In this document: in pieces, positions 50,751 to 63,059 of the stretch
Layout: each line of letters starts with the position of its first letter
Numbering within the stretch: position 1 is the stretch's first letter
Assembly (NCBI RefSeq): GCF_030010235.1
Contig: NZ_JASCRS010000001.1
Span: forward strand, 992,001-1,056,000
Length of the DNA stretch: 64,000 nt
DNA from: Leucobacter sp. UT-8R-CII-1-4
GTDB taxonomy: Bacteria; Actinomycetota; Actinomycetes; Actinomycetales; Microbacteriaceae
Direction: 5' to 3'
Notes under the pieces: model-generated
The model's database searches: none
What the model saw: the letters and a program-made list of their open reading frames with translations, nothing else
What the model was told of the DNA's origin: nothing
Made by a program: the position numbers and the translations under genes

Positions 50751-52289
50751 TCAGTCGGTACTGCGCTGCAATTCAGCCTCGAATACGCCAACGGCGAGAC
50801 GTACCCGGTTTGGCTCGGCGCGATCGACGACAAGCCACCCTGCCGGCAATTCACCAAGCCAGAGCTCTTCGGTCTGCCCAACTGGGAGAACCGGGAGCTT
50901 TTGATCACCGGGCAAGATCACGGTCAGCTGCTCTTCAAGCTGGGTGATTTGTACTTCCCGGTTCCATCCGGGCTCACGGTAGAGCCCGACCGCTGCGCTC
51001 GGGGGTGGCCCGGCTGCAGCAAGTTTTGAGTACGGCACGTTGACCCCGAACGCGGTCGCGATGTGCAGTCGCCCGTCGATCATTTCGATCAGGCTGAAAT
51101 CGTCTTCTCGTGTCCAGCGGCGTTCGCCGTTGCGTTGCATCACGAATCCTGGGCCTGCCAGGCGAAGTTTTGCATTGAGATTTCCGTCAGCAAGCACCTC
51201 AAGCTGAACGATGTTGTGGCCTTCATCTGAGTACCAGAACCCGGCGATGCCAGCCAGCGAACTTGCCAGTTGGAATGCTCGCCAGGCGTTGTCTGGCGCC
51301 GAATAGTCGCTTCGATTTGAGAAGCAGGCAACACTCAGCCCGGTTACCTGGTCGACGAGCGAGTAGGCGGTGTAGCCCCACATGCCACCGCTGTGGCACT
51401 GCGCGATCGTCTCGCCGCGCTGCTCGTGCTCGATTCCGAGGCCGTAGCTTGAAACCTGACCGTCGGCGAGCACTACGCGTTCGAACAATTCTTCGCGCAC
51501 GTCTTTGCCGAGCACGCGCCCGTCTCGCAGGAACGCATGCCATTTGCCGAAGTCGTTCAGGGTGCTGATCACTTGGCCGCCGCCGCTCACGTTGCGCACG
51601 GGTTCAACTTCACCAACGCCCATGCTCACGCGCACAAAGCTTCCGTCTGGCTGGGCGGTGAAGCTCATCGCCATGCCCTGCTCGAATTGGCCGAGTGTGC
51701 GAATAATGAAGCTGTCGTTCATGCCGAGCGGTCGAAACACCGATTCTTCTACAAGCGACGGAAACTCAATTCCGCTTGCGCGCTCTGCGGCGAGCGCGGC
51801 GAGCGCAAAGCCGGTGTTCGAGTAGCCCTGATTGGTTCCTGGCACGTAGCTGCCCTTGGTGACGGTACTGATCCACGAAAGAAACGTATCGAGGGAATTA
51901 ATCTCGATGAGCGCGACACCGGCGACCATAGCTGCCGCATAGTAGTCGGGCACGCCGGCGGTGTGGTTCAGGCAATTGCGGACGGTGACGCCCTCAAGTT
52001 TCAGCTCTGGCACCCAGCGGCGAATGTCTTCATCAAGGTCGAGCTCGCCGTGTTTTGCTGCCATCAATACGGTAGTTGCCGAGATCTGCTTGCTCACCGA
52101 GGCGATGTACATGAGAGTGGTCTCGGTGAGCGGCTCAGGTGTCGTCTTGGTGATGTCGTCGACTCCGGCACACGCGCTCGCGATCATCTCGCCATCACGG
52201 TACACAGCGATCACTGCGCCCGGTTGGCTTGCGCTGATCTTCGGGGCAAGCAACTCGTTGTGCAGTTGTGCGCTGAGCGTGGTGTCCAT
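50751..52289 (-). CDS. D-aminopeptidase-like serine hydrolase (DAP/class C beta-lactamase fold), copy 1
   Basis: The 512-residue protein matches the three-domain plan and length (about 520) of D-aminopeptidase. The catalytic SxxK is SVSK at residues 64-67, the YxN is YSN at 156-158 and the third motif is HSGG near residue 290, close to the positions in Ochrobactrum DAP. The C-terminal 180 residues are beta-rich (lipocalin-like barrels). There is no signal peptide, so it acts in the cytoplasm, cleaving N-terminal D-residues or a related amide. The ATG at 52289 is chosen to match copy 2; an ATG at 52313 adds MKKRPESH. It follows copy 2 after a 170-nt gap. Confidence 0.85.
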   Translation of the reverse strand: MDTTLSAQLHNELLAPKISASQPGAVIAVYRDGEMIASACAGVDDITKTTPEPLTETTLMYIASVSKQISATTVLMAAKHGELDLDEDIRRWVPELKLEGVTVRNCLNHTAGVPDYYAAAMVAGVALIEINSLDTFLSWISTVTKGSYVPGTNQGYSNTGFALAALAAERASGIEFPSLVEESVFRPLGMNDSFIIRTLGQFEQGMAMSFTAQPDGSFVRVSMGVGEVEPVRNVSGGGQVISTLNDFGKWHAFLRDGRVLGKDVREELFERVVLADGQVSSYGLGIEHEQRGETIAQCHSGGMWGYTAYSLVDQVTGLSVACFSNRSDYSAPDNAWRAFQLASSLAGIAGFWYSDEGHNIVQLEVLADGNLNAKLRLAGPGFVMQRNGERRWTREDDFSLIEMIDGRLHIATAFGVNVPYSKLAAAGPPPSAAVGLYREPGWNREVQITQLEEQLTVILPGDQKLPVLPVGQTEELWLGELPAGWLVVDRAEPNRVRLAVGVFEAELQRSTD

Positions 52290-52459
52290 GTGCGATTCTG
52301 GCCTTTTCTTCATTGCTTGGGCGAAATTCTTTGCTGTCGGCGGTCGCTGAGGGGTACCGATCTCGTCGAGAACGAGCGCTAGTTTGTGTTGTTTCGCTCG
52401 TTTTCGGCGGTTGCGATGTGTTTTGGTACTTTCGGTACTTTTCGGTGGCGGTGGATCGC

Positions 52460-53992
52460 CTAGCTCTTGGCTCGCGTCAGTTCTGCGGCAAATGAGCCTC
52501 GGGTGTAGCGCACTCCGCCGCCGGGCTCGCGATCCACAACGAGAAGTCCGAACGCGGTTTCGCCGAGCCAGACTTCTTCGGTCTGCCCCCAGGGCGTAAT
52601 GGCGAGTTCGTTTCCGTCAGCCAGCACCAGCGTGAGCCCGGTGTCGCGCTGTTCAATCTTGAGCTCTCGCTGCCAGGTTGGTTCGCTGTAGTTGCCTAGC
52701 GTGCCGTCTGGTAGTGGTCCGGCGACCTCGACTCGGGAGTAGGGCATTTTCAGTTCAAACATCGGCGCGATGTAGAGGCGACCGTCGATCAGCTCGACCG
52801 CGGCGAATCCACCGTCGCGACTCCAGGAGGTCTTGGTGAGGCGGCGCAGCGTGGTGCCCGGCGCGCTTGAGTGTAGTTTGATTTGCACGTTGCCGTCGAC
52901 GAGGGTGTCTAGTTGTACTCCGTGAAAACTCTGTTCTGAGAACCAGCGGCCCGAGATTCCTCCGCTTGTGGTCGCCAGCTGGTAGGCGCGCCACGCGTAT
53001 TCTGGCGACATGAAGTCCCCGCGGTTTGAGAAGCATGCGACGCTCAACCCGCTGGTTTGGTCGACGAGTGAGAACGCGGTGTAGCCCCACATGCCACCGC
53101 TGTGGCTTTGCACGACGGTGTCGCCTCGACGTTCGTTATCGATTCCGAGTGCGTAACTTGAGATTCGTCCGTCGTCGAGCACTGCGCGCTGAATCAGTTG
53201 ATTGCGAATGTCTCGGCCAAGTACTCGACCGTCGCGCAAGAAACCGTGCCACTGACCGAAATCGGCGAGGCAGCTGACAATCTCGCCGTCGCCAAACACG
53301 CTGCGCACCGTTGGTTCGGTACCGACGCCCATCGGCACCTCTTCGAATGTGCCGCCCGTTGCCGGTTTGAAGCTGAGGGCCATGTTCGGCCGGGTTTCGC
53401 CGACTTTGCTCGCGGCAAAACTTCGGGTCATGCCGAGTGGCCGCAAGACTGTCGCTTCGATCAGGGTAGGAAACTCAACTCCTGTGGCGCGCTCGGTTGC
53501 GAGGGCCGCTGCGACATAGCCGGTGTTCGAGTATGCCTGGCTTGTGCCGGGCAGGAAGTCTGGTTTTGTGACGGTACCGAGCCACGCGGTGAACTTTTCA
53601 AGCTCAACGCTTTCGACGACCGAGATGCCTGCAACAAAGGCAACGGCAAAGTAGTCGGGTAGTCCGGCGGTGTGGTTCAGGCAGTTGCGCAGTGTGATTC
53701 CGGGCAGCTGGAGTTCGGGCAGCCAGCGGCGGATGTCTTCGTCGAGGTCAACCGAGCCGTTCTTGGCTGCCAGCAGAATTGTGGTGGCGGCGATCTGTTT
53801 ACTCACCGAGGCGATGTTCAGCAGGGTCTCTTCGCTCAGCTGTTCTGGCGCTGCAATGTTGGTTACACCGCGGCATGCGCTTGCGATCATTTCGCCGTCT
53901 CGATACACCGCGATTACGGCGCCTGGCTCGTCTGCACCGATGCGACCCACCAGCAAATCGCTGTGTAGCCTTTCGCTGAGTGCAGTATCCAT
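52460..53992 (-). CDS. D-aminopeptidase-like serine hydrolase, copy 2
   Basis: A 510-residue paralogue beginning MDTALSERLHSDLL. The motifs are SVSK in LLNIASVSKQIAATT, YSN in SQAYSNTGY and HSGG in VVQSHSGGMWGYTAFSL. The N-terminal half is closely shared with copy 1 and the C-terminal barrels less so. No signal peptide is present. With the two peptide-binding lipoproteins it forms a run of duplicated pairs that suggests uptake and hydrolysis of peptides containing D-amino acids, perhaps cell-wall fragments. The frame opens at 54091; the ATG at 53992 is supported by the paralogue. A -10-like or ribosome site is not strong. Confidence 0.85.
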   Translation of the reverse strand: MDTALSERLHSDLLVGRIGADEPGAVIAVYRDGEMIASACRGVTNIAAPEQLSEETLLNIASVSKQIAATTILLAAKNGSVDLDEDIRRWLPELQLPGITLRNCLNHTAGLPDYFAVAFVAGISVVESVELEKFTAWLGTVTKPDFLPGTSQAYSNTGYVAAALATERATGVEFPTLIEATVLRPLGMTRSFAASKVGETRPNMALSFKPATGGTFEEVPMGVGTEPTVRSVFGDGEIVSCLADFGQWHGFLRDGRVLGRDIRNQLIQRAVLDDGRISSYALGIDNERRGDTVVQSHSGGMWGYTAFSLVDQTSGLSVACFSNRGDFMSPEYAWRAYQLATTSGGISGRWFSEQSFHGVQLDTLVDGNVQIKLHSSAPGTTLRRLTKTSWSRDGGFAAVELIDGRLYIAPMFELKMPYSRVEVAGPLPDGTLGNYSEPTWQRELKIEQRDTGLTLVLADGNELAITPWGQTEEVWLGETAFGLLVVDREPGGGVRYTRGSFAAELTRAKS

Positions 53993-54191
53993 TGAATACA
54001 CCTGAGCCTTTCTCACCACGTCGTTGTGTGTCTGGCGTCGCAGAGCTAAAAGTTGCAACTCACGCCAGCCTATTTGTCTGTCAACGCACAAAAATGTTGA
54101 GCTCGACGAAAGCAGAGCGAAATGCCCGTTCGATCCGACAAGTACTTAGGTGTGGCGCCAGTTCTGGCTCATCGAAAACACCTGGTTTTAT

Positions 54192-55474: not shown

Positions 55475-56272
55475 CTATTTTTTTGATCTGAGTTCGCGTC
55501 GTTTGGGAAGGCGCTGACTGGGCGCAGCCGCCACATCAGATTCACGAGTTGTGGCACTTTGCTGCGCCCCAACCTTAGCTTCTGCCTTTGCCGAGAGGCC
55601 TTTGGGGTTTGCACGATGCCGCCATATCGCCCGGCCAAATAGAAACAGCGCCCACGCATAGCCGACTACCGCAATGCCAATGATCGCGACCGAGCGGTTG
55701 CCCTCATCATGATTCAGCCAGGTATTAAATGTGCCGATGGGTGGTGGCAGGTGGTACCAGACGGTACCGCGAATTTGATAGTCGGAAACCTTGTCTCGAT
55801 CGGGCACCCGGTTGTTATCGCCCTTGGTGGTGTAGGCCATGACGCCGTCGGCGTGTGCGGTCATGCTCACGATGCGGTGGATGATGATCGTCGGGTCGTT
55901 GCGGTCTGGCTGGTAGGCGACCACTGCTCCAAGTTGCAGGCTGCTGAAGTCTGATCGGGCACGAATCTCTTCGGGCGTAAGTACGGTGAGTTCGTCGCGG
56001 CTGAGTGGGCTGTTCGGCTTAATAATCGCGAGGCTGCCAACCGGCATACTCGGTGCCATTGAGTCGGACAGAATTGTGACCGGAACGGCGCCTGCAAACT
56101 TTGGGATCACCACAACAATGCTTGAAGCGGCGAGCGCAATACCGAGCAATCCGTAGGAAAGCCCCTGCAGAACGGTGTTGAACCATGAGTTCGGCGGGGT
56201 TTCTGGTTTGAGTTCAGGTTTCAGTTCTGAGTTGACTCCAGCTTGTGAATCTGGCTCGGCTTTGACTGACAT
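55475..56272 (-). CDS. sipW: SipW-like (ER-type) signal peptidase I, copy 1
   Basis: The 265-residue membrane peptidase has an N-terminal helix (LSYGLLGIALAASSIVVVIPKFAG), the catalytic Ser in ILSDSMAPSMPVGSL, the His that replaces the bacterial lysine in IIIHRIVSM and the TKGDNNRVPD box, followed by IRGTVWYHLPPPIGTFNTWLN and a second membrane helix. The Ser-His pair marks the ER/archaeal-type family that includes Bacillus SipW, dedicated to TasA-like exports. The C-terminal 60 residues are charged and cytoplasmic. I use the ATG at 56272, 10 nt after the copy 2 stop. It is the last gene of the adhesin operon. Confidence 0.88.
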   Translation of the reverse strand: MSVKAEPDSQAGVNSELKPELKPETPPNSWFNTVLQGLSYGLLGIALAASSIVVVIPKFAGAVPVTILSDSMAPSMPVGSLAIIKPNSPLSRDELTVLTPEEIRARSDFSSLQLGAVVAYQPDRNDPTIIIHRIVSMTAHADGVMAYTTKGDNNRVPDRDKVSDYQIRGTVWYHLPPPIGTFNTWLNHDEGNRSVAIIGIAVVGYAWALFLFGRAIWRHRANPKGLSAKAEAKVGAQQSATTRESDVAAAPSQRLPKRRELRSKK

Positions 56273-56282
56273 TTCGGCGCGG

Positions 56283-56990
56283 CTATTCTTCGGCGGTGTT
56301 CGTCTCTGGCGTTGCGGTAGGCGCGTCGGCGATGCTGGCTCTAACGTCACGTAAGGCTCGGCGGCGAGCGCGCGCCGGTACGATGAACTGCATGAGTGCC
56401 CAGAAGTAGCCAACCGCGGCAATAATGATGATCGCAATCATGTGGTTTGTTGTGTCGTGGTTCAGCCAGGTATTGATTGTGCCGATGGGTGGCGGCAGGT
56501 GGTACCAGACGGTTCCTCTGATCTGAAAGTCGAATACCGGGTCACGGTCTTCCGTGTTGTTGTTGTCGCCTTTCGTGATGTATTCCATGCTGCCGTCACC
56601 GTGTGCGGTCATTCTGACGATACGGTGAATGATGAGCGTCGGGTTCTTGGGGTCTGGTTGGTACGCGACTATGTCGCCGTTGCTCAGCGTCGAATAGTCT
56701 GAGGCGTTTCGAATCTCTTCGGGCGAGCGCGTGGTGAGCGCTGCTTGATCCAGCGCGCTGTTTGGCCGAATGATGGCGAGGCTGCCCACTGGCATTGTCG
56801 GAGCCATCGAATCCGAAAGAATTGTTACCGGAATCGCACCGGCGACCTTTGGAATGATGATTGCGACACAGGCGAAGGCGAGCGCAGCACCGAGCAGAGT
56901 GTAGGAAATCAGACGCAGTATGACATTGAAGAAAGAAAACTTGCTGCGTGGGGGCACAAGCGTCTCTACGGGGGTGGTTTGAAGGGTCAT
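56283..56990 (-). CDS. sipW: SipW-like (ER-type) signal peptidase I, copy 2
   Basis: The 235-residue paralogue has the helix ISYTLLGAALAFACVAIII, the catalytic SDSMAPTMPVGS, the LIIHRIVRM histidine and TKGDNNNTEDRD, then IRGTVWYHLPPPIGTINTWLN and the terminal helix HMIAIIIIAAVGYFWALM. Its ATG overlaps the stop of copy 3 by 4 nt (ATGA) and is preceded by GGGAG 7 nt upstream. The N-terminal cytoplasmic stretch is short (MTLQTTPVETLVPPRS), unlike copies 1 and 3. Such enzymes cleave after the hydrophobic segment of exported proteins. Confidence 0.88.
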   Translation of the reverse strand: MTLQTTPVETLVPPRSKFSFFNVILRLISYTLLGAALAFACVAIIIPKVAGAIPVTILSDSMAPTMPVGSLAIIRPNSALDQAALTTRSPEEIRNASDYSTLSNGDIVAYQPDPKNPTLIIHRIVRMTAHGDGSMEYITKGDNNNTEDRDPVFDFQIRGTVWYHLPPPIGTINTWLNHDTTNHMIAIIIIAAVGYFWALMQFIVPARARRRALRDVRASIADAPTATPETNTAEE

Positions 56991-57883
56991 GATTGGCTCC
57001 CTATGAGCTCGCGTTCAGATTCAAGTTGTGCAGCGCTCTCGAGTTCTGAGCTTTCGACTGCGTGCAGCAGCCAGGCGGGCGCTATGAGTTTCTGGGGGTC
57101 TTGCGTGTGTGTTACCGCTGAGGTGTCGCCTGGCCCTTGGGGGCCTTGACGTTTCTGTTGTTTCGTTTGCGCGGGCGGCTCTATCTCGCCTGGTTTGTGG
57201 CGGCGGAAAGCTCGCCAGAAGAGGGTGAGCGCCCAGATGTAGCCTGCGCCTGCCACGATGATCACCGCAATGAAGTGGTTGGTGGGGTCATGGTTCAGAA
57301 AGGTGTTAATTGTGCCGAGCGGCGGTGGCAGGTGGTACCAAACCACTCCCCTAATCTGAAAGTCAGCGACGGCGTCTCTGTCGGGTACCCGGTTGTTGTC
57401 GCCCTTGGTGGTGAAGCTAAAACTGCCGTCGGCGTGCGCGCTGACGCTCACGATTCGGTGAATAACAAGCGTCGCGTTGCGCGGGTCTGGTTGATACGCG
57501 ACCACATCGCCGATAGAAAGATTCGAATAGTCGGAGGCCTCACGAATCTTTCCTGGCGATCTGGTCTGAATCTCGGCCATATCGAGCGGGCTTGTCGGTT
57601 TGATAATCGAGAGGCTGCCGAGCGGCATGCTCGGCGCCATTGAGTCAGAGAGAATTGTGACCGGCACCGCGCCACCGAGTTTCGGTACGACGATGGTTGA
57701 ACCGGTAAAGGCGACAGCCACAAGCAAGAGCGAATATGAAAACACCCGCAACAGCAGGTTGATCGCCTGTTGCGTTTTGCTCGGTTCGGCTTCGCCCGCC
57801 GGATGGCGAGCAGCCGAAGTGTGCCGGGGCTGAGCATTCACGCTCAGCCCCGGCACACCCAGCGCTTGCAGTGAAATGGCCAT
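56987..57883 (-). CDS. sipW: SipW-like (ER-type) signal peptidase I, copy 3
   Basis: The 298-residue copy nearest the adhesin has a long hydrophilic start (about 40 residues), the helix VFSYSLLLVAVAFTGSTIVV, the catalytic SDSMAPSMPLGSL, the LVIHRIVSVSAHADG histidine and TKGDNNRVPDRD, then FNDHDPT-type loops and a helix near the C-terminus (VIIVAGAGYIWALTLF). The last 60 residues are charged. It begins only 5 nt after the adhesin stop, so the two are translationally coupled. All three copies keep the three catalytic boxes, so none looks dead. Confidence 0.88.
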   Translation of the reverse strand: MAISLQALGVPGLSVNAQPRHTSAARHPAGEAEPSKTQQAINLLLRVFSYSLLLVAVAFTGSTIVVPKLGGAVPVTILSDSMAPSMPLGSLSIIKPTSPLDMAEIQTRSPGKIREASDYSNLSIGDVVAYQPDPRNATLVIHRIVSVSAHADGSFSFTTKGDNNRVPDRDAVADFQIRGVVWYHLPPPLGTINTFLNHDPTNHFIAVIIVAGAGYIWALTLFWRAFRRHKPGEIEPPAQTKQQKRQGPQGPGDTSAVTHTQDPQKLIAPAWLLHAVESSELESAAQLESERELIGSQS

Positions 57884-57888
57884 CTTCT

Positions 57889-60800
57889 TTATTGCCAGGC
57901 CAGTGGCCAGCGGTACTTAAACTCCGGCGCGAGACCCGGTGTATTAAAGTTCCAGGTAACAGGAATCGTGGAAATCTTTGCTACGTTCCAGGCTGAAAGA
58001 TCGCGGTCAAACACTGAATTACCGCTGAACATAAAATCCATGTTGGTGACGTTCGAGACATCCCAGTTGTAAAGGTCTTGATTGAATACACCCTGGCCGA
58101 AGGTAAAATTCATGTTGGCAACACTGCTAACGTTCCAGTTGTTCAGTGGCTGGTCAAAAGCAGAAGCACCGCGGAACATGTATGAAATGTCCGTCACGTT
58201 TGTCATGTTCCAGCTATCCAGCGACTGATTAAATTGGTACGCCGCGTAAAACATCTTGGATGTTGTCGTAACACCCGACATATTCCATGAGCCGATGGGC
58301 TGATCGAAGAGATACGCGGCTTCGAACATACTTGCCGTGTTGACCAAAGAAGTAGTTACCCAGTTCTTGATCGAATCGCTGCCGTCATTATTGAAGGCCT
58401 GAGAACTCCGGAACATGCCAGACATTGTGCTGACGTTGGCAACATTCCAATTACCTAGAGACTGATTAAACGTCGAGGCTCTTTCGAACATTTGGTCCAT
58501 GTGCGTCACGTTGCCAACGTTCCAGGCGCCAATGGGCTGGTTGAACGCGGCCGCATAATTAAACATGCCGCTCATATCGGTCACGTTAGAGACATCCCAT
58601 GAACTGATGTCTTGGTTGAACGCGGCCGCATAACTGAACATGAACTTCATGTTGGTAATCGTTGCGGGGGGTGCCGCAACAGACTGCAGGTTGGACGCAG
58701 AATCAAACGCCGATGTAGCGTCGGTCACACCGTTCGCATCCCATTGAGAGACCGAAATCAACCCAGCGTTTGAAGTATTCGCCACGGTATTTCCGTATGA
58801 GGTGAACTCACCCCTAATCTTCACCGTGTACGTGCCGGCAACCGCATAGTTATGCGTCGGGTTTGCAGACACGACGGTCTGCACCGGTGAACCATCACCC
58901 CAGTCGATCGTGACCGTTCCGAGCGACAACCCGCCAACCGGCACCAACACATTATTCGTCGCACCAGGTAGCGAAGTGTCATAGTTCAACACCATCTGCG
59001 GCAACGGCTGCCACGGCAACGGCCAACGATAGTTAAACGTCGACGACAAGCCTGGGGCGTTGAAATTCCAATAAAACGGCATCGTGGGGAGCAGTGCACC
59101 CACATCCCAGCCCGACAGATCCTGCGCAAACGCCGATGCAGACACAAACATCATGTTCATAAAAGCGACATTCGCCACATCCCAGCCACTAATGTCCTGG
59201 TTAAACGCCGATGCAGACTGAAACATCCCATTCATAGAAGTGACATTCGACACATCCCAGCCACCAATATCCTGGTTAAACGCCGATGCGTCAAAAAACA
59301 TGGCGTCCATGGATGTCACGTTCGCCACATTCCAAGCGGAGAGATCACCATTGAAGATGGTCGCTCCCTCAAACATGGACATCATCCTGGTAATCGTTGC
59401 CGGAGGAGTTGCAACAAACTGCAAGTTGTACGCAGAATGAAACGCCGCTGTCGCGTCGGTCACACCATTCGCGTCCCAGCGAGACACCGAAACGAGACCC
59501 GCATGCGAACCGTCATACGCTGGATTACCAAATCGCGTGAACTTGCCCTTAATTGTCACCGTATATGGGCCAGCAACCGCATAGTTATGCGTCGGGTTCG
59601 CAGACACGACGGTCTGCACGGGAGAACCATCACCCCAGTCGATCGTGACCGTTCCAAGCGTCAGCCCTCCAACCGGCACAGCCACATTATTCGTCGCACC
59701 AGGCAGCGAAGTGTTGTAGTTCAACACCATCTGCGGCATTGGTTGCCACGGCAACGGCCAACGATAGCTGAACGCAAGCGCCAGGCCAGGGGCACCTTGG
59801 TTCCAGGACAGCGGCATCGTTGGGAGGTTGGCGGCAACGTCCCAGAGTGAAAGATCTTGCGCAAACCCTGTCGCCGCAAAGAACATGTAGTTCATATTGG
59901 TGACATTGGCAACATTCCACGCACCAATATCCTGATTGAACAGCACCGTGTTCGAGAACATGAACGACATATTTGTGACGTTTGCCACATTCCAAGCGGA
60001 AATATCTTGGTTAAACCCAGACGCAGCCGTAAACATTGAAGACATGTCAGCTACATTCGCAACATTCCAACCGCCAATCGGCTGGTTAAACGCCGTTGCG
60101 TAGGCAAACATGCCCTGCATGTCTGTGACGTTCGTCACATTCCAGTCGGAGACGTCACCGTTAAATCCGTACGCTTCAACGAACATGTACTGCATATTGG
60201 TAATCGAGGCCGGAGGCCTCGCAACACTCGCCAGGTTATATGCCGCAGAAAACGCCCATGCAGCATTGGTCACACCATTTGCATCCCAACGAGACACTGA
60301 AACAAGACCAGCGCGCGAGGTGTCGGGCTCATTGTCCAAACCAAAACGGGTGAACCCGCCCGTAATTGTTACCGTGTACGGGCCAGCAACCGCATAAACA
60401 TGCGTCGGGTTCGCAGACACGACAGTCTGCACAGGAGAACCATCACCCCAGTCGATCGTGACCGCACCAAGCGACAACCCGCCAAGTGGCACCAACACAT
60501 TATTCGTCGCACCAGGCAGCGAAGTGTCGTAGTTCAACACCATCTGCGGAATACCCAGGTGAATATCTTGCAGCGGCACATCGAGCGGGTAAAGCGTGTC
60601 TTGCCAAACAGTGCCAGTGCTGAGCACTAATTGAGCAGCCGAGAGGTTAATCAGCTCACCATTAAACATGGCCTCACTCGTCGAGGTGAGGCTGAGTGTG
60701 ATGGTGACTGTCTGTTCATCAGGTGAGACGACGAGTTCGCTCGTGCTCACCGACACATCAAGCGAATCTCGCACCGATTCTGGCAGAGTCCAGCCGCTCA

Positions 60801-61260
60801 GTTCGAGCTTTGGCTCCATGTTTGAACCGGTGACTTTCACTCTTGTATCAAATGACACGGTGAAGGTCTCTCCAGGGCGCAACACGTCATGATTCGGGTC
60901 AAAGGCGGATTGATCGAGCAGGTATACCGGTGATCCGGTCGACAAGATCTCTACTTGGCCGGTTGAAATGTTCCCAGACACTGCCGCGGCAGTGGTGTCG
61001 CCCCAAAGAGAATAGGCTCCCATGCCCTTCGGCAGAATCGCAGTTGCGGCGAGAACCGAAACTGCAAGAAACATGACAAACACCGCACGCATTGGTGAGC
61101 GCCGTTGCCTTGAGGCCAGCACAGCAGATTCGTGCGAGTGGCGAGCCGAACGAGGATTTCGGGCGCCGAGAAAGGCAAACGAGTGCACCGCCGAGCGATC
61201 CAGGCTGAGCCTAAACCGCTTCGAGGGTGCACCATGCGCGTGCCTTGGGGCCGAAGACAT
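57889..61260 (-). CDS. Large secreted adhesin: BspA-type leucine-rich repeats plus PKD-like domains
   Basis: The protein of about 1123 residues starts with a basic hydrophilic stretch, then a hydrophobic segment (VFVMFLAVSVLAATAILPKG) and SLWGDTT, the SipW-cognate motif. A beta domain (about 90-245) follows. Then three modules come in turn: a PKD-like domain with VTIDWGDGSPVQTVVSANPTH and a block of BspA (DUF285) repeats of type FNQDISAWNVANVT-x-M-x-x-MF, with about 5, 4 and 9 repeats. It ends YRWPLAWQ with no LPXTG or anchor helix. BspA repeats bind host or matrix proteins in other bacteria. The ATG at 61260 has AGGA 9 nt upstream; 61266 is an alternative. A bacterial adhesin or matrix role is inferred. 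Confidence 0.85.
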   Translation of the reverse strand: MSSAPRHAHGAPSKRFRLSLDRSAVHSFAFLGARNPRSARHSHESAVLASRQRRSPMRAVFVMFLAVSVLAATAILPKGMGAYSLWGDTTAAAVSGNISTGQVEILSTGSPVYLLDQSAFDPNHDVLRPGETFTVSFDTRVKVTGSNMEPKLELSGWTLPESVRDSLDVSVSTSELVVSPDEQTVTITLSLTSTSEAMFNGELINLSAAQLVLSTGTVWQDTLYPLDVPLQDIHLGIPQMVLNYDTSLPGATNNVLVPLGGLSLGAVTIDWGDGSPVQTVVSANPTHVYAVAGPYTVTITGGFTRFGLDNEPDTSRAGLVSVSRWDANGVTNAAWAFSAAYNLASVARPPASITNMQYMFVEAYGFNGDVSDWNVTNVTDMQGMFAYATAFNQPIGGWNVANVADMSSMFTAASGFNQDISAWNVANVTNMSFMFSNTVLFNQDIGAWNVANVTNMNYMFFAATGFAQDLSLWDVAANLPTMPLSWNQGAPGLALAFSYRWPLPWQPMPQMVLNYNTSLPGATNNVAVPVGGLTLGTVTIDWGDGSPVQTVVSANPTHNYAVAGPYTVTIKGKFTRFGNPAYDGSHAGLVSVSRWDANGVTDATAAFHSAYNLQFVATPPATITRMMSMFEGATIFNGDLSAWNVANVTSMDAMFFDASAFNQDIGGWDVSNVTSMNGMFQSASAFNQDISGWDVANVAFMNMMFVSASAFAQDLSGWDVGALLPTMPFYWNFNAPGLSSTFNYRWPLPWQPLPQMVLNYDTSLPGATNNVLVPVGGLSLGTVTIDWGDGSPVQTVVSANPTHNYAVAGTYTVKIRGEFTSYGNTVANTSNAGLISVSQWDANGVTDATSAFDSASNLQSVAAPPATITNMKFMFSYAAAFNQDISSWDVSNVTDMSGMFNYAAAFNQPIGAWNVGNVTHMDQMFERASTFNQSLGNWNVANVSTMSGMFRSSQAFNNDGSDSIKNWVTTSLVNTASMFEAAYLFDQPIGSWNMSGVTTTSKMFYAAYQFNQSLDSWNMTNVTDISYMFRGASAFDQPLNNWNVSSVANMNFTFGQGVFNQDLYNWDVSNVTNMDFMFSGNSVFDRDLSAWNVAKISTIPVTWNFNTPGLAPEFKYRWPLAWQ
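58790..60550 (-). repeat. Three repeated PKD-like coding blocks inside the adhesin gene
   Basis: Near-identical DNA coding WGDGSPVQTVVSANPTH and the preceding MVLNYDTSLPGATNN appears at about 60370-60545, 59575-59740 and 58840-59005. The sequences around each are also duplicated, including the YRWPLPWQP joint. This shows modular growth by internal duplication of a PKD plus BspA unit. Confidence 0.8.
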
Positions 61261-61289
61261 AACCATACTTCCTGCTCGGAGGGGGTAGA

Positions 61290-61320
61290 CCCCGGTTAGA
61301 GTTTGATCTTCTAACCGGGG
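61290..61320 (-). terminator. Hairpin between TasA-like gene 1 and the adhesin gene
   Basis: Perfect 11-bp arms CCCCGGTTAGA and complement, 19 nt past the TasA-like stop and 24-30 nt before the adhesin start. On the minus strand the stem is not followed by a T run, so partial termination is likely and the adhesin would be expressed at a lower level. Confidence 0.65.
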
Positions 61321-61338
61321 CCATTTGGGATGCTTTAG

Positions 61339-61941
61339 TTATGGAGTCACTGGTGCTGGGGTAGGTGCCTGAACCTGATCCAGCTGAACAGTAAGCGCGC
61401 TCAGATCAATCACGTTTGCTGCGTCCTGGCCGAGCAGCCCAGTGATCTGATCGCTGAACTTCACGGTGATCTTCACTGGAACACGCTGTGGGTTCACATC
61501 TGGGAAGATCGTCTGGTTTGCGTTGTTCACGCTCACCGTGATGAAGCCATCCCAATCAGGGTCGTTGATCGTGTACGAGCTCTGATCAATGCTGAACTCA
61601 CCCAGCATGTCGTCACCGGTCACGAGAACATTCGCGAAGGTGTTGTAGATCAGTTCGTCACCGGGCGATACCAACCAGTTGGCGATATCGGCGATTGGCG
61701 TTTCGATACCGGTAATGCCGGTGCCGGTCATATCGGTATCGTTATTAGCGAAGTACCAGTCGCCAGCTTCGACATCCTGGATGCGGAGCTGACCGGTAGT
61801 GATGGAATCGTTGATTCCACCAGTAGCTGTGTCTTGCCAGAGCGAGAAACCACCGAAACCGCCAAGCAGAACGGCAGTGGCAACGGTTGCGGCTACAGCG
61901 CCGCGTGCGGCGGCGCCGCCGCGCTTCTTGTTAATAGACAT
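61339..61941 (-). CDS. TasA/camelysin-like SipW-cognate secreted protein, copy 1
   Basis: The 200-residue protein has a basic start (MSINKKRGGAAARGA), a hydrophobic segment at about residues 13-32 (VAATVATAVLLGGFGG), the SipW-cognate motif FSLWQDTATGGINDSITTGQL and a beta-rich mature domain. The mature part includes WLVSPGDELIYNTFANVLVTGDDMLGEF and SVNNANQTIFPDVNPQRVPVKITVKF, and ends with APTPAPVTP. This is the plan of TasA/CalY, whose mature forms polymerise into biofilm fibres after SipW cleavage. It is almost identical to copy 2 apart from one variable loop at residues about 68-88. It precedes the adhesin on the same strand. Confidence 0.82.
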   Translation of the reverse strand: MSINKKRGGAAARGAVAATVATAVLLGGFGGFSLWQDTATGGINDSITTGQLRIQDVEAGDWYFANNDTDMTGTGITGIETPIADIANWLVSPGDELIYNTFANVLVTGDDMLGEFSIDQSSYTINDPDWDGFITVSVNNANQTIFPDVNPQRVPVKITVKFSDQITGLLGQDAANVIDLSALTVQLDQVQAPTPAPVTP

Positions 61942-61994
61942 GAGTGATGGTCTCCCTTTCGTTGAGTCAATGGACCACCACTAGCTTCAATCTG

Positions 61995-62009
61995 GTTTGG
62001 TATACAAAC
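61995..62009. promoter_or_regulatory. Palindrome upstream of TasA-like gene 1
   Basis: GTTTGGTATACAAAC, with perfect GTTTG/CAAAC arms, lies about 54 nt before the start codon. It contains TATACC on the minus strand, a possible -10. The exact sequence recurs at 62941-62955 before copy 2, inside duplicated flanks of about 90 nt that also include TTGAGTAG. Confidence 0.6.
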
Positions 62010-62107
62010 AACCACTAAAAGGGGCGAAAAACTACTCAAGTTTGAGGGTCGCTACTCAGACGTACGCTTGGTCTCACGGACTCGCAAAAAGCCGTTCACT
62101 CGGGACT

Positions 62108-62128
62108 GCTCGGCTTTGCCGAGCTTTT
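62108..62128 (+). terminator. Orphan plus-strand hairpin with T tract
   Basis: GCTCGGC, TTT loop, GCCGAGC and TTTT. It is a compact terminator-like structure on the strand opposite to all neighbouring genes, with no plus-strand gene in front. Confidence 0.5.
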
Positions 62129-62230
62129 GGGCAGGCCACCAAAACCAGCACTTCACCGGGCAATACGGCAAGAGCCAAACCTGCGTTCATGGCGCGCTTC
62201 ACCTACACCGTCGGGCGCCCATGCAGAAAG

Positions 62231-62268
62231 TTTCGGTGGGCCCGTCGACAAAACGGGGCCCACCGAAA
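62231..62268 (-). terminator. Hairpin after TasA-like gene 2
   Basis: Perfect 13-bp arms TTTCGGTGGGCCC and complement, 16 nt past the stop at 62285. On the minus strand the stem is followed by CTTTCTGC. Confidence 0.75.
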
Positions 62269-62284
62269 CCTCACTAGCCCAAAC

Positions 62285-62887
62285 CTATGGAGTCACTGGT
62301 GCTGGGGTAGGCGCCTGAACCTGATCCAGCTGAACAGTAAGCGCGCTCAAATCAATGACGTTTGCTGCGTCCTGGCCAAGCAGCCCAGTGATCTGATCGC
62401 TGAACTTCACGGTGATCTTCACTGGAACACGCTGTACGTTCACATCTGGGAAGATCGTCTGGTTTGCGTTGTTCACGCTCACCGTGATGAAGCCATCCCA
62501 ATCAGGGTCGTTGATCGTGTACGAGCTCTGATCAATGCTGAACTCACCCAGCATGTCGTCACCGGTCACGAGAACATTCGCGAAGGTGTTGTAGATCAGT
62601 TCGTCACCGGGCGATACCAACCAAGTGTTGATATCGATAGGACGCTCTTCATCGAACGGCCAGCCCAGGACTTCCATATCAGTATCGTTTGCCGCAAAGT
62701 ACCAGTCGCCCGCCTCGACATCGTTAATACGCAGCTGACCAGTAGTGATGGAATCGTTGATTCCACCAGTAGCTGTGTCTTGCCAAAGCGAGAAACCACC
62801 GAAACCGCCAAGCAGAACGGCAGTGGCAACAGTTGCGGCTACAGCGCCGCGTGCGGCGGCACCGCCGCGCTTCTTGTCAACAGACAT
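62285..62887 (-). CDS. TasA/camelysin-like SipW-cognate secreted protein, copy 2
   Basis: This 200-residue near-twin of copy 1 has the identical signal region (FSLWQDTATGGINDSITTGQL) and identical stretches such as VSPGDELIYNTFANVLVTG and GLLGQDAANVIDLSALTVQL. The differences are concentrated at residues about 55-90 (ANDTDMEVLGWPFDEERPIDINTW versus NNDTDMTGTGITGIETPIADIANW), the loop after the first beta strand. A variable loop on an otherwise fixed scaffold suggests a distinct surface or assembly face. It has its own promoter copy and a hairpin at its end. Confidence 0.82.
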   Translation of the reverse strand: MSVDKKRGGAAARGAVAATVATAVLLGGFGGFSLWQDTATGGINDSITTGQLRINDVEAGDWYFAANDTDMEVLGWPFDEERPIDINTWLVSPGDELIYNTFANVLVTGDDMLGEFSIDQSSYTINDPDWDGFITVSVNNANQTIFPDVNVQRVPVKITVKFSDQITGLLGQDAANVIDLSALTVQLDQVQAPTPAPVTP

Positions 62888-62940
62888 GAGTGATGGTCTC
62901 CCTTTCGTTAAGTCAATGGACCACCACCAGCTTCAAACTG

Positions 62941-62955
62941 GTTTGGTATACAAAC
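62941..62955. promoter_or_regulatory. Palindrome upstream of TasA-like gene 2
   Basis: GTTTGGTATACAAAC, identical to 61995-62009 and at the same distance (54 nt) from its gene. Confidence 0.6.
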
Positions 62956-63059
62956 AACCACCAAAGAGGGCGCAAAGCTACTCAAATTTCGGCAAGGCCC
63001 TCATGCGCAAGAACCGAAGGGCACACCATCCCGTGTCATCAACGCCAAAAAAGGGAGAA

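What the first reader, a model, noticed from the sequence alone, without database searches (positions are those of the whole stretch)
55475..62887. Actinobacterial SipW-TasA-type system combined with a large BspA/PKD adhesin
Six adjacent minus-strand genes: two near-identical TasA/camelysin-like small proteins, a protein of about 1120 residues with BspA-type repeats and PKD-like domains, and three ER-type signal peptidases. All three substrates carry SLW-x-DT after a hydrophobic segment. The last four genes are coupled with gaps of 5-10 nt or 4-nt overlaps. This looks like a dedicated surface fibre or biofilm-matrix machine whose fibre subunit, adhesin and processing enzymes travel together. 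SipW-TasA is known in Bacillus; this composition in a high-GC bacterium is not one I can match to a described system.
Basis: partly seen in the sequence, partly recalled or inferred. Interest (0 to 1): 0.85.

Follow-up and report, generated by a model that had tools for sequence, protein, structure and literature searches.

The report
TasA-like fibre operon with repeat adhesin
A bacterium carries a small gene set that probably builds TasA-like surface fibres and plugs a large sticky repeat protein onto them; the fibre-plus-peptidase part is common in its relatives, while this repeat-protein version is a rare variant.

Summary
The six-gene observation is correct. TAS1 and TAS2 exceed the NCBIfam TIGR04089 cut-off. 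The peptidases exceed TIGR02228 and keep Ser-His-Asp. The 1125-aa protein is 3 x (PKD + DUF285/PARCEL) behind a TAS-like N-domain with a SipW-type signal. The SipW/TAS pairing is not new: TIGR04089 occurs in 84 of 199 family genomes, and 82 of 86 relatives' loci fetched have a same-strand SipW-like gene within 6 kb of TAS. New here is the unit TAS - [TAS-like domain + DUF285 adhesin] - SipW, seen in four genomes of two families, and, in the window, three SipW genes in a row. A profile of 46 TAS proteins ranks AbpX and both TasA chains first in the PDB, with weak scores; TasA's proline-box residues are conserved. The adhesin's TAS-like domain keeps the donor aromatic but lacks the acceptor glutamine in 5 of 5 cases. 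I read it as a donor-only subunit that starts, probably tips, a TasA-like fibre. Related operons often hold ricin-type lectins instead. AlphaFold models were too weak to show the fold. Fibre formation is inferred.

The parts
62285..62887 (-). TAS1: TasA-superfamily fibre-subunit candidate, 200 aa, SipW-type signal ending GGFSLWQD
   Evidence: TIGR04089 83.8 bits, cut-off 60; proline-box residues W35, P93-G94, Q189
61339..61941 (-). TAS2: tandem copy of TAS1, 91% identical, differing mainly in aa ~51-84
   Evidence: TIGR04089 82.2 bits; identity by 50-nt bins
57889..61266 (-). Adhesin, 1125 aa: SipW-type signal, TAS-like N-domain, then 3 x (PKD + DUF285/PARCEL array); no LPxTG or C-terminal membrane segment seen by eye
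   Evidence: PF03382 602 bits, PKD_4 56.8 bits; TIGR04089 34.1 bits, below cut-off; 18 PARCEL units by a local profile
60553..61020 (-). TAS-like N-domain of the adhesin (from GAYSLWGD on)
   Evidence: hhalign of mature parts 92.0 and 93.8% probability against TAS; homologues in L175, L192, L266, L291
56987..57883 (-). SipW1: ER-type signal peptidase, 298 aa
   Evidence: TIGR02228 67.8 bits; S81, H142-R143, D162, D168 invariant in 92 aligned sequences
56283..56990 (-). SipW2: ER-type signal peptidase, 235 aa
   Evidence: TIGR02228 73.6 bits; catalytic residues kept
55475..56272 (-). SipW3: ER-type signal peptidase, 265 aa
   Evidence: TIGR02228 67.2 bits; catalytic residues kept
62230..62269 (-). 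Strong RNA hairpin after TAS1, no T tract
   Evidence: -39.1 kcal/mol for 62215-62288, z -4.64
61288..61322 (-). Strong RNA hairpin between TAS2 and the adhesin, no T tract
   Evidence: -26.6 kcal/mol for 61268-61342, z -4.48
62888..62988 (-). 5' region of TAS1, about 100 bases, duplicated ahead of TAS2 (61942-62042)
   Evidence: alignment of upstream stretches

Best explanation
The operon makes and processes a TasA-like surface fibre that carries a large adhesive protein. TAS1 and TAS2 are the abundant fibre subunits. They cross the membrane by Sec, and a dedicated ER-type peptidase (SipW1-3) cuts near the SLWxD segment, freeing an N-terminal strand. As in TasA, that strand would insert into the next subunit, so subunits chain by donor-strand exchange. 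The DUF285 protein has the same signal and a TAS-like domain that keeps the donor aromatic but has lost the acceptor glutamine, so it would donate a strand but not accept one. It would therefore be the first subunit (a TapA-like starter and probably a FimH-like tip), held on the fibre by this strand instead of by sortase. Hairpins after each TAS gene would keep adhesin and peptidase scarce relative to TAS. Shown here: gene set, recurrence, homology, residue patterns. Inferred: secretion, cleavage, fibre, tip position, adhesion, stoichiometry.
For: Unit recurrence TAS-adhesin-SipW in G221, G249 and G784. Profile of 46 TAS without Bacillaceae rows: the first three of 177635 distinct PDB sequences are AbpX (E 2.9e-4), TasA 5of1 (0.011), TasA 8aur (0.017); the next is a designed protein at 0.076. 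TasA proline box F29/P62/Q232 (PMC10151520, passages) matches W 134, P 146, Q 148 of 152 TAS. Adhesin N-domain homologous to TAS without the signal, hhalign 92.0 and 93.8%; SipW controls 0.9-5%. Glutamine in 5 of 5 partner TAS and 0 of 5 N-domains; tryptophan in all ten. TapA precedent: its N-terminus donates, its complete Ig fold cannot accept. The own genome's four other DUF285 proteins carry L-x-NTG tails and no SLWxD signal, by eye. Hairpins.
Against: Pfam camelysin/TasA model PF12389 gives no hit to TAS1/2 at E 0.1. AlphaFold model of TAS1 is poor (pLDDT 42.4), N-domain moderate (64.3), with only middling PDB matches and no TasA among the rows listed. The TasA matches rest mainly on the C-terminal half (116-188; best single stretch 13.9 bits for 5of1). 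With the signal removed, family TAS and Bacillaceae profiles match weakly (hhalign 5-42%), the window-lineage TAS hardly (0.2-0.5%), the N-domain 3.9-21%; a mature-only TAS profile did not hit the two adhesins tested. N-domain profile finds no TasA in the PDB. The F200 counterpart is F in only 73 of 152 TAS. The acceptor proline is still present in 3 of 5 N-domains, and the L192 N-domain has a glutamine one column earlier. G249 hairpin is weak (z -1.59). No expression or imaging data.
Confidence: 0.6

Rival explanations
1. Fibre with the adhesin as a repeated, mid-fibre or side-decorating component, not a starter or tip. The TAS-like domain both donates and accepts, so several adhesins are built into one fibre.
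For: N-domain is TAS-like over about 100 columns by profile; proline of the box kept in 3 of 5.
Against: Acceptor glutamine missing in 5 of 5 N-domains but present in 148 of 152 TAS.
Confidence: 0.15
2. Ordinary co-secretion: SipW handles several unrelated secreted proteins, TAS is a monomeric or lattice-forming matrix protein, and the adhesin acts alone.
For: Structure prediction did not establish the TasA fold; the N-terminal parts of ten large SipW-type proteins of other family loci do not look TAS-like by eye.
Against: Recurrent adjacency in four genomes; conserved interface residues; PDB profile ranking.
Confidence: 0.17
3. TAS is a camelysin-type metalloprotease or an antimicrobial factor, not a fibre.
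For: Three of four Bacillaceae relatives tested exceed the cut-off of Pfam 'camelysin metallo-endopeptidase', the fourth is below it.
Against: TAS1 and TAS2 contain no histidine at all, so no HExxH zinc site; no Pfam hit at E 0.1.
Confidence: 0.05

Closest known systems
Bacillus subtilis tapA-sipW-tasA
   Same: Dedicated ER-type peptidase, SipW-type signals on a small subunit and on a second protein, proline-box residues, a donor-only starter (TapA; PMC10151520, passages) as the model for the adhesin
   Different: No PF12389 match; peptidases fail the Bacillus SipW equivalog cut-off (48.8-51.1 against 190 bits); three peptidases; starter replaced by a 1125-aa PKD/DUF285 protein
Bacillus cereus sipW-calY1-bc_1280-calY2
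   Same: Two camelysin copies with one SipW locus (PMC10151520, passage)
   Different: No large adhesin mentioned in the passages seen
Family-wide TIGR04089 loci (L051-L139)
   Same: TAS, a large SipW-type protein in many, and SipW in one cluster
   Different: Large protein often a ricin-type lectin without an evident TAS-like domain, often with a membrane-anchored protein that the window lacks
PARCEL/DUF285 proteins of mollicutes and Listeria
   Same: Same repeat (TIGR02167, DUF285; PMC2996958, passages)
   Different: NCBIfam names those families lipoproteins or surface proteins, not SipW substrates
Type 1 pili with FimH (recalled)
   Same: Donor-strand chain with a special first subunit at the tip
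   Different: No chaperone-usher, no outer membrane, donor strand exposed by a peptidase

Membership tests
TIGR04089 exp_by_SipW_III | Whole-protein score at or above 60 bits, TAS1 and TAS2 | tested here: met
   83.8 and 82.2 bits
TIGR04089 exp_by_SipW_III | Same cut-off for the adhesin | tested here: not met
   34.1 bits, residues 70-159
TasA/camelysin (PF12389) | Pfam model match | tested here: not met
   No family at E 0.1 for TAS1 and TAS2
TasA superfamily | Proline-box residues (aromatic after cleavage, P, C-terminal Q) | tested here: met
   W 134, P 146, Q 148 of 152 TAS; aromatic and P in 13 of 13 rows of A8; F200 counterpart F in only 73 of 152; paper residues
TasA superfamily | Profile match to solved TasA-type chains | tested here: met
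   AbpX 2.9e-4, TasA 0.011 and 0.017 as the first three of the PDB; weak, and for TasA mainly the C-terminal half
TasA superfamily | Jelly-roll fold | tested here: inconclusive
   TAS1 pLDDT 42.4; N-domain 64.3, matches Z 7.2 at most and not clear of unrelated rows
TasA superfamily | Fibre assembly by donor-strand exchange | not testable with these tools
   Needs protein
ER-type signal peptidase I (TIGR02228) | Score over 51.85 and Ser-His-Asp | tested here: met
   67.8, 73.6, 67.2 bits; S81, H142, D162, D168
Bacillus SipW equivalog NF046067 | Score over 190 | tested here: not met
   48.8-51.1 bits
DUF285/PARCEL | PF03382 and TIGR02167 over cut-off | tested here: met
   602 and 172.6 bits
BspA-type LRR_5 (PF13306) | Pfam match in the window's adhesin | tested here: not met
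   Absent at E 0.1
Sortase-anchored surface protein | C-terminal LPxTG-like motif plus membrane segment | tested here: not met
   By eye: protein ends ...YRWPLAWQ

The most novel reading that the evidence does not exclude
In this actinobacterial family and its kin, exposing an N-terminal strand by SipW is a general plug: adhesive heads with different folds (ricin-type lectins, laminin-G, DUF285 arrays) are mounted, without sortase or chaperone-usher, on the end of TasA-superfamily fibres, so each lineage swaps heads on one shared fibre. The window's DUF285 form is one such swap, with a TAS-derived donor-only adaptor domain.
Probability: 0.35. Interest if true: 0.82.

Novelty: new variant of a known kind. 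Interest (0 to 1): 0.6.

Why it matters
If right, it extends donor-strand TasA-type fibres, studied in Bacillus and archaea (PMC9674648, PMC10151520, passages), to a large actinobacterial family and gives them tip adhesins. It offers a sortase-independent way for Gram-positive bacteria to present large adhesins. The within-genome contrast (four DUF285 proteins with sortase-like tails, one with a SipW-type signal) makes the idea directly testable in one strain.

Tried and rejected
Structure route: both AlphaFold jobs spent; TAS1 too poor to read, N-domain moderate. In the N-domain's structural list the first rows are FimH lectin domains (Z 7.2, rmsd 3.8, 121 aligned), with FimA, CfaB and CupB6 lower, but unrelated rows (site-one protease 6.3, NBR1 6.2) are tied, so I draw nothing from it; TasA is not among the rows listed. 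The TAS1 structural list had no row above Z 3.3.

A profile of A8 hits TasA at 6.9e-15, but A8 contains Bacillaceae CalY/TasA-like rows, so I do not use it; one search is the clean test.

My first DUF285 pattern did not flag the G249 adhesin; a PARCEL profile replaced it, and 'DUF285 only in the window' was withdrawn.

The stop reported inside the G221 TAS match is not a break: the ORF runs intact to its stop.

First named-genome scan with TAS found no relative; TAS1 not found on plasmids.

Paper searches (open-licence papers only): SipW with actinobacteria, 16 papers; alternate signal with SipW, none; SipW-dependent, 2; TasA with camelysin and actinobacteria, 1; TasA with Actinomycetota and filament, none; at least two of SipW, lectin, Microbacteriaceae, Leucobacter and others, 863 of which only 15 were listed. 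No title listed names such a system; apart from passages of PMC10151520, PMC9674648 and PMC2996958 I read no paper.
Full report
OBSERVATION. The six minus-strand genes are present as described. TAS1 and TAS2 are 91% identical; a third copy in the same genome, on another contig, is 67-68% identical, with no second TAS and no SipW-like gene in the 19.9 kb fetched around it. NCBIfam names the small proteins TIGR04089 'exp_by_SipW_III' and the peptidases TIGR02228. The large protein has DUF285 (602 bits) and PKD. All three peptidases keep the serine, histidine and aspartates that are invariant in the 92 SipW-like proteins aligned, so all look active.

HOW COMMON THE CORE IS. TIGR04089 is found in 84 of 199 genomes sampled from the family. 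I fetched 92 loci: 6 from the window's own genome and 86 from 76 relatives; hits in seven further genomes (G018, G052, G062, G099, G107, G113, G183) were not fetched. Of the 86, which were chosen for having a TIGR04089 hit, 82 have TAS with a same-strand SipW-like gene within 6 kb; 3 have TAS but no such gene in the stretch (two of them cut short by the contig end) and 1 has no TAS at my threshold. So the pairing itself is ordinary for this family. Three SipW-like genes in a row were seen in none of these loci; a few hold two.

WHAT ELSE THOSE LOCI HOLD. Many contain a large protein with a SipW-type signal, and often a protein with a C-terminal membrane segment. I picked 24 such large proteins by eye for Pfam; 20 carry a ricin-type beta-trefoil (4 of 4, 8 of 10, 8 of 10), one of these also laminin-G and PKD. 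This is not a random sample; a local ricin profile, built from twelve of them, finds one in 28 of 82 loci, and it missed at least one Pfam-positive locus, L092. Their N-terminal parts, printed for ten, show the tryptophan motif but no TAS-like domain that I could see.

THE DUF285 UNIT ELSEWHERE. Search with the adhesin's N-terminus in 54 genomes of the genus: 6 match, and besides the window only G221 strongly (44%, E 3.6e-54); its locus reads TAS 192 aa, adhesin 879 aa (one PKD and DUF285 over cut-off), SipW 227 aa, in order and closely spaced, between other neighbours than in the window. A search of 398 family genomes with the N-domain gave 42 with a match; the strong outside one, G249 (another genus, E 7.4e-16), has TAS 189 aa, adhesin 553 aa, SipW 192 aa with a 4-nt overlap; the others are at 3.9e-10 or weaker, mostly in ORFs of TAS size. 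Of 396 order genomes 20 match; the strong outside one, G784 (another family, E 1.7e-32), has TAS 227 aa, adhesin 609 aa and a SipW-like gene. Pfam finds DUF285 but no PKD in the G249 and G784 adhesins. Seven weaker matches whose surroundings I fetched (G243, G355, G409, G321, G424, G804, G486) hold no gene that the PARCEL profile hits; the remaining weak matches were not all inspected. So the unit is real but rare and patchy. L192 (Cellulomonadaceae MAG) has the same TAS-like N-domain on a different C-terminal part between TAS and SipW, and L191 (Bifidobacteriaceae MAG) has TAS, an LPVTG-containing protein and SipW.

SIPW TREE. In a tree of 95 SipW-like proteins the window's three form one clade (100/99), and they group with G221, L191, L192 and G249 (95/95; the bootstrap had not fully settled, and L191 is a long branch). 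On these rows the triplication arose in the window's lineage, while the peptidase type spans several families. G784 was found later and is not in the tree.

IS TAS A TASA RELATIVE? Against: no PF12389 match, poor structure model, weak profile match once the signal is removed. For: a profile seeded on the window and extended over the family hits Bacillaceae TasA/CalY-like proteins (1.8e-12 downwards), although the shared signal contributes; a profile of 46 TAS without Bacillaceae rows puts AbpX (an archaeal pilin by its name, recalled), TasA 5of1 and TasA 8aur first among all PDB sequences, at E 2.9e-4, 0.011 and 0.017, though the TasA matches lie mainly in the C-terminal half. TasA's conserved protomer contact is made by F29, P62, F200 and Q232 (PMC10151520, passages). 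In 152 TAS the matching columns hold W 134, P 146, Q 148; the likely F200 column holds F 73. In the MAFFT alignment with Bacillaceae the aromatic and proline columns agree in all 13 rows; the terminal glutamines are present by eye but not in one column, and one hhalign alignment pairs them. I conclude: member of the wider TasA-like group, probable; member of Pfam camelysin, no.

THE ADHESIN AS A DONOR-ONLY SUBUNIT. Its N-domain is homologous to TAS even without signal (hhalign 92.0 and 93.8%; SipW control 0.9%), although a mature-only HMMER profile of TAS did not hit the window and G221 adhesins. In the ten-row alignment all five N-domains and all five partner TAS keep the tryptophan; the acceptor glutamine is in 5 of 5 TAS and 0 of 5 N-domains, which share a tryptophan four residues on; the proline is in 3 of 5 N-domains; the L192 N-domain has a glutamine one column earlier. 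In TasA, F29 belongs to the donor, Q232 and P62 to the two following subunits, and TapA is proposed to start filaments because it donates but cannot accept. From this I infer the adhesin starts the fibre. Whether the start is the distal tip is a further inference from subunits being added at the membrane. None of this has been observed.

CONTRAST WITHIN THE GENOME. Four other DUF285 proteins (C1:234k, C1:900k, C6:301k, C6:349k) have ordinary-looking signal sequences and end in L-x-NTG, a hydrophobic stretch and basic residues, a sortase-like tail, judged by eye. The window's protein has neither. The same repeat is thus apparently displayed in two ways.

EXPRESSION. An intrinsic-terminator-like site follows the isocitrate lyase gene at 63093-63059. 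Strong hairpins without T tracts, not listed by that scan, follow TAS1 (z -4.64) and TAS2 (z -4.48); the G221 gap folds at z -3.57, the G249 gap at z -1.59. They could lower read-through into adhesin and SipW genes, or stabilise TAS mRNA. Promoter-like matches were not above chance (4 found, 3.6 expected).

VERDICT. A real, recurrent, rare variant of a known kind: SipW-processed TasA-like system with a built-in PKD/DUF285 adhesin and a tripled peptidase. Confidence 0.6 in fibre plus strand-held adhesin; the starter/tip position is less sure.

Noticed in passing
62285-62887 and 61339-61941: The two TAS copies are 45-50 of 50 identical per 50-base bin except at gene positions about 150-250 (38 and 23 of 50), just after the putative donor strand; it looks like a diversifying loop between otherwise homogenised copies.
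   Followed up: partly
62888-62988 and 61942-62042: About 100 bases ahead of both TAS genes are duplicated and hold a near-palindrome TTTGTATACCAAA; the first part of the stretch, not the near-palindrome itself, recurs ahead of the lone third copy on contig 5.
   Followed up: no
L116, L125, L140, L141 (own genome): Four further DUF285 proteins with ordinary-looking signals and L-x-NTG sortase-like tails.
   Followed up: partly
L142:6982-7575 (own genome, C4): A fourth, distant SipW-like peptidase with no TAS gene in the 14 kb fetched around it.
   Followed up: no
relatives' loci L051-L139: Large SipW-type proteins beside TAS genes often carry ricin-type lectin domains; a family-wide fibre-plus-lectin theme worth its own study.
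   Followed up: partly
50751-52313 and 52460-54091: Two tandem paralogues of the beta-lactamase/serine hydrolase family (PF00144) downstream of the operon.
   Followed up: no
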